From Alphaproteobacteria bacterium (GTDB taxonomy: Bacteria; Pseudomonadota; Alphaproteobacteria; Rhizobiales; Beijerinckiaceae), in NCBI GenBank assembly GCA_016870035.1, contig VGCJ01000012.1, positions 1-37,212 of the forward strand: a DNA stretch of 37,212 nt. The letters run 5' to 3'. Position 1 is the stretch's first letter. Every line of letters begins with the position of its first letter. This document shows positions 5,928 through 34,381 of this stretch, in pieces. A program made the position numbers and the translations under genes. Under the pieces are notes generated by a model that worked only from the letters and a program-made list of their open reading frames with translations, had not been told where the DNA came from and did not search any database.

Positions 5928-6485
5928 TCACTTCACCGCAAAAACGCGCGCGCCGTCGCGATGCCCCCTCCAATTATCGAGATAGGCTTTCGCCATTTTT
6001 GCATCATCGATCACAAGGAGATTTTCAGCATTCAGTGATTCAGCGCTTTGTGTAAAATTACAGGAACCGGTGACAACTTTTTTGCCATCAATGACCATCA
6101 CTTTATTGTGGGCAATCGCGCAACAATAATCAACATAAAGCGGAATATTCGCTTCGCTCAGAAGTGACATCACAGAATAGCGTTCGGAATTTTGGCTTTT
6201 ATCGACAATAACAGCCACATCAACACCGCGACGATGTGCTTCAACCAGAGCTTCGGCAATCGGACGCGCGGTAAAACTATACGCTTGAACACGGATCGGT
6301 TCACGCGCTGACGAGATCGCTTCAAGAATCAAGGTGGAACAGCGGCCATCAGGCGAGAAGCACAACTTCCATGGCGGCGCTTCACCCGCTTCCAGGCGAT
6401 GAGCCGCAGAGCCAAGCACCACCAATGCGAGGAGCACAGGTGAAATCAGCCAAAACCGTCTGAGCGTGATCCGCTTACCCATCAT
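5928..6485 (-). CDS. Secreted single-HKD phospholipase D family nuclease-like protein
   Basis: A 186-residue protein with one HKD motif, AHNKVMVIDGKKVVTGSCNF (about residues 125-144), giving His126, Lys128, Asp133, Ser141 and Asn143. A single HKD in a small protein fits the Nuc/endonuclease branch, which dimerises to form one active site. The N-terminus (MMGKRITLRR, then a hydrophobic stretch to about residue 27) looks like a signal peptide or membrane anchor, so the enzyme is probably periplasmic. Four or more Cys are present, including CC at 121-122. The frame extends upstream to 6605, but that part reads as non-coding. I start at the tandem ATGs at 6480-6485, with a G-rich run about 12 bases upstream. 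It converges on the TPR pseudogene with 2 bases between them. The substrate is unknown. Confidence 0.8.
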   Translation of the reverse strand: MMGKRITLRRFWLISPVLLALVVLGSAAHRLEAGEAPPWKLCFSPDGRCSTLILEAISSAREPIRVQAYSFTARPIAEALVEAHRRGVDVAVIVDKSQNSERYSVMSLLSEANIPLYVDYCCAIAHNKVMVIDGKKVVTGSCNFTQSAESLNAENLLVIDDAKMAKAYLDNWRGHRDGARVFAVK

Positions 6486-6611
6486 GAACGTTACAGGCCC
6501 CCACACAACCGTTGGAGCACTATACAACTTCAAGATGAAAAATGTCAGATCTACAACCTGAATTTTTTTGAGTTGCCCTACGGTCTGCCCGTAAACCAGG
6601 CGCAAGTCATG

Positions 6612-6836
6612 TCAAAATTTGTCAAGCAAAGACGAGGTGTGATCTTCTTCGTCCGGATCATCTGTTTCAATGGCAGGAATCGCGTAACTACCGGTAAGCC
6701 ATCGCCCGAGATCCAGATCCGCACAGCGTTTCGAGCAAAAGGGACGGAAGTCACGGACAGCCCTTTTGCTGCAACTCGGACAGCGACCAAGCATAACAAC
6801 TTTTCCGGTTTCGTCTTTTTCAGGAGTGTCTGTCAC
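6612..6836 (-). CDS. yacG: Zinc-binding protein YacG (DNA gyrase inhibitor family)
   Basis: A 74-residue protein with the YacG zinc site: CPSC (about 19-22) and FCSKRCADLDLGRWLTGSY, supplying four Cys ligands. The tail is acidic, as usual. Members bind GyrB and inhibit gyrase in Escherichia coli; the role here is inferred from the family. The start codon overlaps the maf stop by four bases (ATGA, 6833-6836), so it is probably coupled to maf and forms the last gene of an infA-maf-yacG unit. Confidence 0.92.
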   Translation of the reverse strand: MTDTPEKDETGKVVMLGRCPSCSKRAVRDFRPFCSKRCADLDLGRWLTGSYAIPAIETDDPDEEDHTSSLLDKF

Positions 6837-31272: not shown

Positions 31273-31779
31273 TCAATTCGTTGTTGTTGTCGCAGCCCCA
31301 TGCTGGTGTTTTTCAGCGGGGTTAGCGCCCACCGCTTCAACCTTAAAATCAAGATCGGCCGATCCCGCTTTCTCGAAAGTGATTTTGCCCTTCACCATCG
31401 TGCCTTCAACAAAAGGCTGCGTGAGGCCAAAAATCATCACGTGAAACGAACCCGGTTTTAATTCAACAGTGGCACCGGCTGGAATGAGCAAGCCGTCTTT
31501 CAACGGACGCATACTCATCACACCGTTCTCGGTTTTCATTTCATGAATTTCAACGCGCGCGATGCCTTCGATGGTTACTGAAACCAAGCGATCATCCTCT
31601 GTACCGTTATTGGTGATTTTCAAAAATCCACCCGCGACTTCTGCGCCATTAGGCGTCGCGCGCGTCCAGGGATGGCCGATTTCAAGTGCGCCGAGCTTGA
31701 AACCATGTGCGAAAACGAGCGACGGCAAAATAATCAGCGATAAAAGCGCTACAAAGTGCGATAGACGAAGAGTGCGCAT
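31273..31779 (-). CDS. Periplasmic copper chaperone PCuAC family
   Basis: 168 residues. A signal peptide (MRTLRLSHFVALLSLIILPS, cut after VFA) is followed by the PCuAC copper(I)-binding set His79, Met81, Met90, His113 and Met115 (HEMKTENGVMSM and SFHVMIFGL), plus a His-containing C-terminal tail (EKHQHG). These proteins deliver copper to cytochrome oxidase assembly or buffer periplasmic copper. I start at the ATG at 31777-31779 because GAGG lies 6 bases ahead; longer versions reach 31833 without a ribosome site. It is 50 bases downstream of the DUF2946-like gene and is the probable last gene of fliN-DUF2946-PCuAC. Confidence 0.92.
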   Translation of the reverse strand: MRTLRLSHFVALLSLIILPSLVFAHGFKLGALEIGHPWTRATPNGAEVAGGFLKITNNGTEDDRLVSVTIEGIARVEIHEMKTENGVMSMRPLKDGLLIPAGATVELKPGSFHVMIFGLTQPFVEGTMVKGKITFEKAGSADLDFKVEAVGANPAEKHQHGAATTTTN

Positions 31780-31829
31780 AAAAAACCTCATGCATTGATT
31801 TGATTGAAGTGAGTTTGAAAAATGGTCAA

Positions 31830-32228
31830 TCAAACCGCAACAGGTGGCGCGCGCAACATTCCAGGCGCTGATAATGGATAACCCGCTACGGGGTTATGAG
31901 ACGCTGGAAGCCACGAATTTAACCGCGAAGACTCCCCATCGATCCGTACCGCGTGAAACGACGAAAGAGACACGATCGCCGAAAGAGCCGGCACGCAACA
32001 AGGGGAGTCGCTGTGATCATGGTTCGGCACTTGATCGGGCGCCGGTTCGGTTCCACAGACAATCTGATTGAGAGATACGTCCATGCCCTGAAAAGCCGGA
32101 AGCGCGTGGGCACCCGCGAGAACTGCGCTGAAAAACAACCCGTAAGCCAGGCAAAGCGCTTGAATCCGCCAACCCCATAGGACGCCGCCAAGCCGTGAGC
32201 CTTTTTGTAAAAGCGCGCTTAATCGCAT
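31830..32228 (-). CDS. DUF2946-like membrane/periplasmic protein
   Basis: 132 residues: a basic N-terminus, one hydrophobic segment (about 20-42, possible signal anchor), then a short exposed region with VCGTEPAP, NHDHSDSPCCVPAL and a Pro/Ala-rich end. The HDH plus CC pattern and the gene order next to PCuAC match DUF2946-type proteins found with copper genes. The function is unknown; metal binding is an inference from the His and Cys. It lies 54 bases downstream of fliN on the same strand. Confidence 0.72.
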   Translation of the reverse strand: MRLSALLQKGSRLGGVLWGWRIQALCLAYGLFFSAVLAGAHALPAFQGMDVSLNQIVCGTEPAPDQVPNHDHSDSPCCVPALSAIVSLSSFHAVRIDGESSRLNSWLPASHNPVAGYPLSAPGMLRAPPVAV

Positions 32229-32282: not shown

Positions 32283-32570
32283 TTAGTTATCCGGCGTAAT
32301 CACATCAGTAAAACGGATCCCCAGCGTCTCACCCATAATCACAATCTCACCCCGCGCTACGGGGACGCCATTGACCATAATCCGCAAATGTTCGCCGGCC
32401 ACCGTATCAAGCTCAACGACCGAGCCGACATTCAATTTCAAAAGATCGCGGATGGTAATGAAGGTCGAGCCCACTTCCACCGTGAGCTTGGTTTCGACAT
32501 TCTCGATCTTCTTGAATTGATTCCCAAGAACGTCAGTCTCGGTAGCACCTGTCTTGCCGTCGTCGGACAT
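32283..32570 (-). CDS. fliN: Flagellar motor switch protein FliN-like
   Basis: 95 residues ending in a complete SpoA (FliN/YscQ) domain: LTVEVGSTFITIRDLLKLNV, GSVVELDTVAGEHLRIMVNG and VPVARGEIVIMGETLGIRFT. FliN forms the lower C-ring, binding FliM and FliH for export and switching. The N-terminal extension is short, as in minimal FliN. No other flagellar or type III secretion gene is in the window; downstream are DUF2946-like and PCuAC genes. ATG at 32568-32570. The gene is intact. Whether it serves a flagellum encoded elsewhere cannot be seen. Confidence 0.9.
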   Translation of the reverse strand: MSDDGKTGATETDVLGNQFKKIENVETKLTVEVGSTFITIRDLLKLNVGSVVELDTVAGEHLRIMVNGVPVARGEIVIMGETLGIRFTDVITPDN

Positions 32571-32717: not shown

Positions 32718-32879
32718 ATGCAACGGAGACGAGCTCAGAAATCAACCCGACATCGGGCCTCATTTTGGGCCGCCGGGATCGTGATGGCCCTCATGATCGG
32801 GACGAGCCTGATGAGTGAGCCCGCAGAGCCTATCCTTTTGCAAGAATCTGAATACACTGCCCCTCCGGAAACGCTGTAA
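32718..32879 (+). CDS. Small one-helix membrane peptide, hypothetical
   Basis: 53 residues: an Arg/Lys-rich N-terminus (MQRRRAQKSTRH), one hydrophobic helix (about 15-33, FWAAGIVMALMIGTSLM) and an acidic, Pro-rich tail. Positive-inside charge suggests an inner-membrane protein with the tail outside. No Shine-Dalgarno stands out, so the call is tentative. Thirty-eight bases separate it from the His-rich gene on the same strand, so they could share a transcript divergent from fliN. Confidence 0.4.
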   Translation: MQRRRAQKSTRHRASFWAAGIVMALMIGTSLMSEPAEPILLQESEYTAPPETL

Positions 32880-32917
32880 TGAGTGCCAACTAGCCCAACC
32901 CCGTGAGGACCCCTTCG

Positions 32918-33106
32918 ATGAGCAAAAAGCAAAAACGCACAGATTACCCCTTAAATTCAACCCGCAGGAAGGCTCCCGCTCCGGCTGCGGCGCATGCCTC
33001 AGAAAGCCACGGCGATCACCAGGGGGACGCCGGTCATCAAGCCAGCCATGATCACCAAGAGCATCAAGGCGGATCCCATAAGAAGGATGATCATTCCCAT
33101 CATTGA
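32918..33106 (+). CDS. Histidine-rich small protein, probable metal binder
   Basis: 62 residues: a basic N-terminal half (MSKKQKRTDYPLN...RRK, then APAPAAA) and a tail with 11 His among the last 37 residues, in HxxH and HxH spacing with Asp, Glu and Gln (for example HASESHGDHQGDAGH, ending KKDDHSHH). There are no Cys and no signal peptide. GAGG lies 9 bases before the ATG at 32918, and a clean terminator begins 7 bases after the stop; both favour this strand over the Met-rich antisense frame 32999-33211. Such tails bind Ni, Zn, Co or Cu. Neighbouring copper-chaperone genes suggest, but do not prove, metal buffering. Confidence 0.62.
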   Translation: MSKKQKRTDYPLNSTRRKAPAPAAAHASESHGDHQGDAGHQASHDHQEHQGGSHKKDDHSHH

Positions 33107-33112
33107 TTCTTG

Positions 33113-33135
33113 GGGGCAGACGCCCCGCATTTTTT
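33113..33135 (+). terminator. Rho-independent terminator after the His-rich gene
   Basis: GGGGC (33113-33117), loop AGAC, GCCCC (33122-33126), then GCA and TTTTTT (33130-33135), starting 7 bases after the TGA at 33104-33106. Confidence 0.82.
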
Positions 33136-33337
33136 GCGCACATCCATGATGGCCGACGATCTCGGCCATCAATTTTTTTAATACAACTTGGTTTTTTGAC
33201 TTAAACTCCACGCAAAGCCTTCATCTGGGCTTTTTATTGCCGCAAAGATGAAATCCACTCTGCCAAAGCAATCGTATTTCTCATAATATAAATTTGCTGT
33301 GTTCTCGATTTCACTTGTAAACAAGGATGGTCTTCTC

Positions 33338-33577
33338 ATGAAAAATCTCGCTTTCGCTGCGCTTCTTGTCATTGGTATGGCCTCACCCGCTCTTGCAGGC
33401 CACTGCCCGATGGATATGAAAAAGATTGATGCGGCAATGAAAACCGCGATGCTTGATGACGCCAAGAAAAAGAAAGTCATGGAGCTCTATGAAAAGGGTA
33501 AAGCCGAACATGAGGCAGGCAATCATAAAGCCTCTGAAGCCGATCTTGCCGAAGCGATGAAATTGCTCGGAATCTAG
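33338..33577 (+). CDS. Small secreted protein with N-terminal HCPMD, unknown function
   Basis: 79 residues: a signal peptide (MKNLAFAALLVIGMASPALA, cut after ALA at residue 20), then a mature part starting GHCPMDMKKIDAAMK, with one Cys next to His and several Met. A Lys/Glu/Ala-rich amphipathic helix pair follows (DDAKKKKVMELYEKGKAEHE, then EADLAEAMKLLGI). His/Cys/Met at the mature N-terminus could bind metal. I recall similar short proteins in Alphaproteobacteria without assigned function. AAGGATGG precedes the ATG. It is followed by a terminator. Confidence 0.78.
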   Translation: MKNLAFAALLVIGMASPALAGHCPMDMKKIDAAMKTAMLDDAKKKKVMELYEKGKAEHEAGNHKASEADLAEAMKLLGI

Positions 33578-33660: not shown

Positions 33661-34381
33661 TCAACTGTTTAAATCATCAATTAAAGGATCGGGATGAGCG
33701 TAAGTCTGTAATGCCACGCGATCAATAATGTCAAATTTCAGACCACGCAATACAACACCATGAGTCCACAACGTGTTGAAGCCGCGCGATAAATGTGCAT
33801 TCGTCATGCCGAGACGCGAAGCGAGGACAGTTTTCTGGATACGCAACTCAAAGCTTGATTGACTTAACACATCGGCTTCAGTGAGAATCCAATTCGCAAG
33901 GCGTTGCCCTGCATTTCTCACTTTCATATTTTTGGGCTCTTTCACCATATCGCGATAGTGCGTTGCCACTTCACGACAGGCAGAAAGTGCAAGAGCGGGG
34001 CTCGTCTCCATCACATCGTGAAATTCCTCAAGCGGTAACTAAAATACGCGCGAAGATACTAAAGCGCGCGCACTCACAAGATAAGATTGTCGCAAAACAA
34101 CGGCCGCGAGAATGAACGCTGTTGGAGGCCTGATGATCGAGACAATGGTTTGACCCCCACCATGGCCAGAAATAAGTTCAAAAAGTCCTTCAGTAAACAC
34201 ATATAAAAAATTTGGGTGCTTCGCCTTCGCGCCCCAAGATGCGCTGCGGGCCGCATTCGATCATTTCACCCCGATCAGCAAGGGCGACAAAATCCGAGTC
34301 CTGTAATGTTCGAAAAATCGGGAACCCCTGAAGCAATCGATAATCACTCTCTCTCACACGGCCCATCCCTCTGCGTACCAC
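33661..34381 (-). pseudogene. Broken Crp/Fnr-family transcription regulator
   Basis: Read through two lesions, this is one regulator of about 240 codons. The N-terminal part (ESDYRLLQGFPIFRTLQDSD ... GREGEAPKFF) loses frame at an A/T run (34198-34210). Homology resumes as VFTEGLFELISGHGGGQTIV and RPPTAFILAAVVLRQSYLVS (cyclic-nucleotide-binding-type barrel), meets an in-frame TAG (34039-34041), then runs through the dimer helix and the C-terminal helix-turn-helix (LASRLGMTNAHLSRGFNTL). No Cys cluster for an FeS centre is visible in the N-terminal fragment, so it is more CooA/FixK/Dnr-like than FNR itself. The start is GTG 34381 or ATG 34366. A perfect FNR-type box lies 12 bases upstream. Confidence 0.85.

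What the first reader, a model, noticed from the sequence alone, without database searches (positions are those of the whole stretch)
32718..33135. His-rich mini-protein locus opposite the copper genes
A 62-residue protein with 11 His in its last 37 residues has a Shine-Dalgarno at good spacing and a terminator 7 bases after its stop. It follows a one-helix 53-residue frame and faces fliN-DUF2946-PCuAC. A secreted HCPMD protein comes next. Together they suggest an undescribed metal-handling neighbourhood.
Basis: partly seen in the sequence, partly recalled or inferred. Interest (0 to 1): 0.5.

Follow-up and report, generated by a model that had tools for sequence, protein, structure and literature searches.

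The report
Small histidine-rich gene near copper genes
A tiny, unannotated, histidine-rich protein gene is real and kept by selection in a small group of lake bacteria, near a copper-handling gene pair, so it is probably a metal-binding protein, while the second small gene reported beside it is only a scar left by a deletion.

Summary
The 62-residue histidine-rich frame (32918-33106, +) is a real gene. Intact orthologs lie in 3 of the 11 other held genomes of the genus. They share a basic head (MSKKQKRTxYPLNSTRR; MGKKTRRTAFPANSQRH in the most distant) and a His-rich tail of variable length. Changes fall mostly at third codon positions, dN/dS is about 0.16 (0.02 in the head), and antisense coding is excluded. 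In all four genomes it lies on the opposite strand from a DUF2946-type gene and a PCuAC copper-chaperone gene: 0.4-0.7 kb away in three, about 6 kb away in the fourth, where other genes lie between. In the most distant genome it is directly divergent from them, without fliN.

The 53-residue frame is a deletion scar. The terminator 7 bases after the stop is not conserved; a stronger one 41 bases on is. FliN and the HCPMD gene are missing at the most distant locus.

The likeliest function is a disordered cytosolic metal buffer. Metal binding, the metal and co-regulation are inferred, not shown. It would work like Hpn-type proteins, but kinship to them was not tested. Novelty is modest: an unnamed, lineage-restricted His-rich family.

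The parts
32918..33106 (+). His-rich 62-aa protein gene (basic head, His/Asp-rich tail)
   Evidence: Frame; orthologs in G149, G154, G120; third-position bias and dN/dS
32905..32909 (+). Shine-Dalgarno GAGGA, 8 nt before the ATG
   Evidence: Sequence; GAGGA kept in G149 and G154
32826..32917 (+). Conserved leader, probably holding the promoter
   Evidence: 88 of 92 bases identical to G149; blocks GAGCCTATCCTTTTG and TCCGGAAACGCTGT kept in G154; no fold better than shuffles
33147..33171 (+). Conserved terminator hairpin followed by a T run
   Evidence: 10-pair stem; kept in G149 and G154; z -6.21
33113..33126 (+).
   Evidence: absent in G154, no T run in G149
32718..32879 (+). 53-aa frame: deletion scar, not a gene; junction about 32819-32828
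   Evidence: The two halves match G149 5.2 kb apart; the first half is the start of a 122-aa frame there; 2 synonymous and 9 nonsynonymous changes in 36 codons
31830..32228 (-). DUF2946-type (CutF/CruR-like) protein, RAPP end, CC in place of CXXC
   Evidence: Orthologs match PF11162 in G120 and G154; CC and RAPP 47 residues apart in all four
31273..31779 (-). PCuAC periplasmic copper chaperone gene
   Evidence: PF04314, 122.6 bits; 80-83% identical in G149, G120, G154
32283..32570 (-). Extra fliN copy between the copper pair and the His-rich gene; probably incidental
   Evidence: FliMN_C; best hits 95% in G149 and 89% in G154, 68% or less in the other 9 genomes; not at the G120 locus
33338..33577 (+). 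Exported-looking HCPMD protein, separate and not constantly linked
   Evidence: homologs in 5 of 12 genus genomes, two without the His-rich gene; three helices predicted

Best explanation
The gene makes a small protein, probably cytosolic. A strongly conserved basic head is followed by a disordered His/Asp-rich tail that drifts in length and order while staying rich in His. The likeliest function is a buffer or chelator of a metal ion (Zn, Ni, Co or Cu) in the cytosol, transcribed as a single gene from its own conserved leader. It lies near, and may be regulated together with, the oppositely oriented DUF2946-PCuAC copper pair. Shown here: the gene, its reading frame, purifying selection, lineage restriction among the genomes searched, the shared locus with the copper pair, and a conserved terminator-like hairpin after it. 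Inferred: metal binding, location, transcription as one unit, co-regulation, and which metal. In the window genome a deletion just upstream left the 53-aa scar frame.
For: Orthologs in 4 of 12 genus genomes, counting the window's. Third-position changes 19 of 30, 35 of 55 and 32 of 51. 11, 14, 11 and 14 His in the four proteins. No structure predicted for the window's protein (mean pLDDT 62.3, pTM 0.12, from 3 rows). Opposite strand from DUF2946-PCuAC in all four, 0.4-0.7 kb away in three. Conserved leader and terminator. Works-like analogy: Hpn sequesters nickel in the cell (PMC4671568, abstract and passages).
Against: No binding was tested. The head, not the His tail, is the most constrained part (dN/dS 0.019 against 0.286, window-G149). 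In G149 about 6 kb and several genes separate it from the copper pair. His tails suit Zn, Ni, Co or Cu(II) better than cytosolic Cu(I) (general knowledge), so the copper link rests on synteny alone. No tie to urease: G154 has the gene but no urease hit.
Confidence: 0.6

Rival explanations
1. The head is the functional part (it binds a partner, a nucleic acid or a membrane), and the His-rich tail is a weakly constrained or pH-sensing appendage.
For: Head dN/dS 0.019 against 0.286 for the rest between the window and G149. A near-identical head starts an S15-type hydrolase in G120 and G149.
Against: His richness is kept in all four orthologs although the tail is rearranged, which suggests selection on composition.
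Confidence: 0.25
2. It is a translated leader or stalling peptide that controls a downstream gene, like the facing DUF2946 protein.
For: Small size, conserved leader, and a copper-regulated uORF family opposite (PMC9426467, passages).
Against: A conserved strong terminator follows it; the downstream gene is not constant (G149 and the window differ, and G120 has no HCPMD gene); no RAPP-like end.
Confidence: 0.06
3. The frame is chance: an artefact of GATCAC/CATCAT-rich DNA, or the coding strand is the Met-rich or 127-aa antisense frame.
For: Such compositions do occur by chance (3 unrelated frames in 378,594 bases), and long antisense frames exist; one of them is open across the gene in all three genomes.
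Against: Third-position bias fits the plus frame; the one antisense frame that could share the bias has stops in all three; a syntenic fourth ortholog exists.
Confidence: 0.02

Closest known systems
Hpn and Hpn-2 (Hpn-like) of gastric Helicobacter (PMC4671568; abstract and passages seen)
   Same: Small, His-rich, lineage-restricted proteins missed by automated annotation; Hpn sequesters nickel in the cell
   Different: Here a basic, His-free head of about 25 residues precedes the tail, the neighbours are copper genes, and there is no urease in one carrier. Homology to Hpn was not tested.
CutF / CruR, DUF2946 copper-responsive upstream regulators (PMC9973294 and PMC9426467; passages seen)
   Same: The gene facing the His-rich gene is of this type: DUF2946, RAPP end, followed by PCuAC, a frequent neighbour of CutF-like genes
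   Different: CC replaces CXXC in all four orthologs, and the spacing to RAPP is 47, against 45 plus or minus one or two. The His-rich gene itself is no member: no Pfam hit, no RAPP.
RcnA-type cytosolic His-rich loops (cable bacteria, PMC11247825; passages seen)
   Same: Cytosolic His-rich stretch thought to handle nickel
   Different: A loop of a membrane exporter, not a free small protein

Membership tests
Hpn / Hpn-like | Sequence homology to Hpn | not tested
   No Hpn sequence was compared. The window's protein has no hit in Pfam, PHROGs or NCBIfam, and the profile of three has none in the PDB.
Hpn / Hpn-like | Small protein very rich in His | tested here: met
   11 of 62, 14 of 66, 11 of 64 and 14 of 67 residues are His
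Hpn / Hpn-like | Binds nickel and controls its level in the cell | not testable with these tools
   Needs a binding assay or a mutant
DUF2946 (CutF/CruR), for the facing gene 31830-32228 | Pfam PF11162 | tested here: inconclusive
   Window and G149 proteins: no hit; G154 21.9 bits (below 23.7); G120 25.1 bits (above)
DUF2946 (CutF/CruR), for the facing gene 31830-32228 | CXXC motif | tested here: not met
   CC instead, no CXXC in any of the four
DUF2946 (CutF/CruR), for the facing gene 31830-32228 | C-terminal RAPP, about 45 residues after the Cys motif | tested here: met
   RAPP in all four, 47 residues after CC; published spacing 45, kept within one or two
PCuAC chaperone, for the facing gene 31273-31779 | Pfam PF04314 | tested here: met
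   122.6 bits against a cut-off of 29.4

The most novel reading that the evidence does not exclude
The 16-17 residue head (MSKKQKR[TS]xxPLNSxR) is a portable module carried by two otherwise unrelated proteins of this clade: the His-rich small protein and an S15/CocE-type hydrolase of G120 and G149. It would recruit both to the same partner, so the His-rich protein would be an adaptor that brings its metal-binding tail to that partner rather than a free chelator.
Probability: 0.15. Interest if true: 0.55.

Novelty: new variant of a known kind. Interest (0 to 1): 0.37.

Why it matters
Very small, compositionally biased genes escape annotation, and none of the libraries searched here covers this one. 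Four orthologs, an exact frame and a shared copper-gene locus make it a testable candidate for a new lineage-restricted metal buffer. The case also shows how a neighbouring mini-gene that looks plausible in one genome can be a deletion scar, visible only by comparison.

Tried and rejected
Antisense coding (Met-rich frame or the 127-aa frame): rejected. Plus third positions map to antisense first and second positions in those frames, and the remaining antisense frame has stops in all three genomes. The 127-aa frame is open across the gene in all three, which I take as chance.

The 53-aa frame as a gene: rejected. One thing stays unexplained: this stretch differs from G149 at only 11 of 108 bases, less than synonymous sites of neighbouring genes.

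Leader as a structured RNA: not supported (Rfam none; z 0.30; no compensatory pairs). A possible pairing of CCTCCGG with the Shine-Dalgarno region appears in all three, but it folds no better than shuffles.

Leader as a conserved short uORF: rejected. G154 has an early stop, and the two window-G149 changes in that frame are both nonsynonymous.

Nickel-urease tie: not supported. Urease passes the cut-off in 10 of 12 genus genomes but not in G154, which has the His-rich gene.

Wider relatives. The single protein against 149 family genomes: 40 genomes had a match at E 0.1 or less, but apart from the window's own all were at E 0.006 or weaker and I did not inspect them one by one. The profile of three against 298: 9 genomes at E 0.01 or less, of which three are the His-rich gene itself, one is the G120 hydrolase, and five other-genus matches were not inspected. 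The head-only profile against 397: 29 genomes at E 0.05 or less; it added the G120 ortholog; one further G149 match has no start at the match; the matches in 25 other-genus genomes (E 7e-4 or weaker) were not inspected. A DNA pattern for the head in 397 order genomes matched 3, namely G000 and two without a usable frame; the reversed control pattern also matched in 3. Nothing in viral contigs or, by the single protein, in plasmids. Genome contigs gave only the two records that correspond to G149 and G154.

His-rich frames beside PCuAC elsewhere: none convincing in the 38 other PCuAC loci examined. These were chosen among the best hits of 336 genomes with a match, not all of them. One of the 38, G150, ends inside PCuAC and cannot be judged. 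The regex meant to mark PCuAC missed many loci and was used for no count.

Full report
What was checked. The window is contig 12 of a 2.38 Mb, 177-contig draft genome. Twelve genomes of its genus are held, its own included. That these are lake samples is my reading of the isolate names (recalled), not a call. G120 is unnamed.

The gene. The frame 32918-33106 translates to 62 residues with 11 His. G149 has a 66-residue and G154 a 64-residue ortholog, 85% and 69% identical, with the same head MSKKQKRTxYPLNSTRR and tails that differ by insertions, deletions and reordering of His/Asp-rich words. Between the window and G149 there are 16 synonymous and 14 nonsynonymous changes (dN/dS 0.16). For the first 17 codons the ratio is 0.019 and for the rest 0.286; against G154 synonymous sites are saturated. 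Changes fall at third positions in 19 of 30, 35 of 55 and 32 of 51 cases (binomial p 7e-4, 4e-6, 2e-5). Plus third positions lie at antisense first or second positions in two antisense frames. The third antisense frame, which could share the bias, has stops in all three genomes. So the plus strand codes for protein. As a yardstick, FliN and the HCPMD gene of the same two genomes show pN/pS of 0.029/0.327 and 0.043/0.437.

A fourth, distant ortholog. A profile of the head found G120 contig 7 at E 1.5e-4. The frame there is MGKKTRRTAFPANSQRH followed by a His-rich tail, 67 residues with 14 His. It is directly divergent from a DUF2946 protein (PF11162, 25.1 bits, above its cut-off) and PCuAC (80% identical to the window's), with no fliN between. 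So the gene was found in 4 of 12 genus genomes. Those other than the window have PCuAC copies 80-83% identical to the window's. Of the remaining eight, G150 has one at 79% but its contig ends inside PCuAC, six have PCuAC at 52-57%, and G152 has no match at the cut-off. Start to start, the His-rich gene lies 690, 715 and 367 bases from the DUF2946 gene in the window, G154 and G120, but 5,954 bases away in G149, where several genes lie between. In 38 further PCuAC loci no convincing His-rich frame lies nearby; over 378,594 bases in all, three unrelated frames met the composition criterion, which is the chance baseline for composition alone.

The 53-residue frame. Window 32570-32828 matches G149 6440-6697 (86%), and window from 32819 on matches G149 from 11954 on (82%), 5.2 kb further along. 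In G149 the first part begins a 122-residue exported-looking protein. The second part is the leader of the His-rich gene, continuous in G154 with upstream DNA that G149 shares and the window lacks. So the window carries the derived state: a deletion fused the signal-peptide end of a lost gene to the leader. It was about 5.2 kb if the G149 layout is ancestral to both. Selection does not visibly keep the fused frame: 2 synonymous and 9 nonsynonymous changes in its first 36 codons. These are few changes, and the stretch as a whole diverges less than nearby synonymous sites, which I cannot explain. The genomes are drafts, and an assembly error at the junction cannot be excluded.

Signals around the gene. 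GAGGA lies 8 nt before the ATG. The 92-base leader is 88 of 92 identical between the window and G149, far above synonymous sites, so it probably holds the promoter; I could not name a promoter class. It does not fold better than shuffles. The hairpin 7 nt after the stop is not conserved. A 10-pair terminator at 33147-33171 is (z -6.21).

Neighbours. Facing the gene are FliN, a DUF2946-type protein and PCuAC. The DUF2946 protein ends in RAPP, 47 residues after CC, in all four genomes. The published family has CXXC and RAPP 45 residues apart, within one or two (PMC9426467, passages). CutF-like genes often neighbour PCuAC genes (PMC9973294, passages). The facing pair is therefore a probable copper-responsive unit, with a changed Cys motif. 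The HCPMD protein is a separate exported-looking protein with three predicted helices. Homologs occur in 5 of 12 genus genomes, two of them without the His-rich gene, and at 42-50% identity on 14 plasmid records. Of the 4 plasmid places I looked at, one lies beside a heavy-metal-domain protein, Spy/CpxP and nirK (pSinB) and three do not.

Function. No family profile matches the window's protein, the three-member profile matches no solved structure, and AlphaFold predicts no structure from three rows. With no visible signal peptide (by eye), a basic head and a His/Asp-rich disordered tail, a cytosolic metal buffer is the best guess, by analogy with Hpn (PMC4671568, abstract and passages). A urease link fails, because G154 has no urease hit (92% complete). 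The copper link rests on synteny alone. Against a pure chelator, the head is by far the most constrained part. A near-identical head starts an S15-family hydrolase (PF02129; the name CocE/NonD is recalled) in G120 and G149. It was found at E 0.0012 by a profile that did not include it (further). The five other genus hydrolases whose starts I could read lack that head; the sixth, in G097, could not be read.

Novelty. Five searches of the open-licence PMC set (listings and first abstract lines) showed no report of this gene. That set omits most subscription journals.

Noticed in passing
L118:1-738 (-), L131, L124 (G120 and G149): An S15-family hydrolase starts with nearly the same 16-residue head as the His-rich gene (MSKKQKRSAFPLNSAR in G120); five other genus hydrolases whose starts could be read lack it.
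   Followed up: partly
31273-32228 (-): A DUF2946 (CutF/CruR-like) protein ending in RAPP directly before PCuAC, with CC instead of CXXC in all four genomes: a possible variant of the copper-sensing nascent-chain regulator.
   Followed up: partly
L108:1588-6855 (G149): A 5.2 kb island with a 122-aa exported-looking protein, FAD oxidoreductase, Rieske oxygenase, M20 peptidase, DUF1028 and RidA-like genes lies between fliN and the His-rich gene in G149 only; the window keeps just the 5' end of the first gene.
   Followed up: partly
L112:3544-5088 (G000 contig 109) and L108:7502-9067: A second HCPMD copy in the window's genome has a 65-aa frame before it and a 300-aa protein after it, the same order as around the G149 HCPMD gene.
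   Followed up: no
32283-32570 (-): An extra, short fliN copy far from other flagellar genes in the window; close copies only in G149 and G154 of 12 genus genomes.
   Followed up: partly
33661-34381 (-): Pieces in different frames, one with a Crp-type helix-turn-helix (PF13545), look like a decaying Crp/FNR-type regulator.
   Followed up: no
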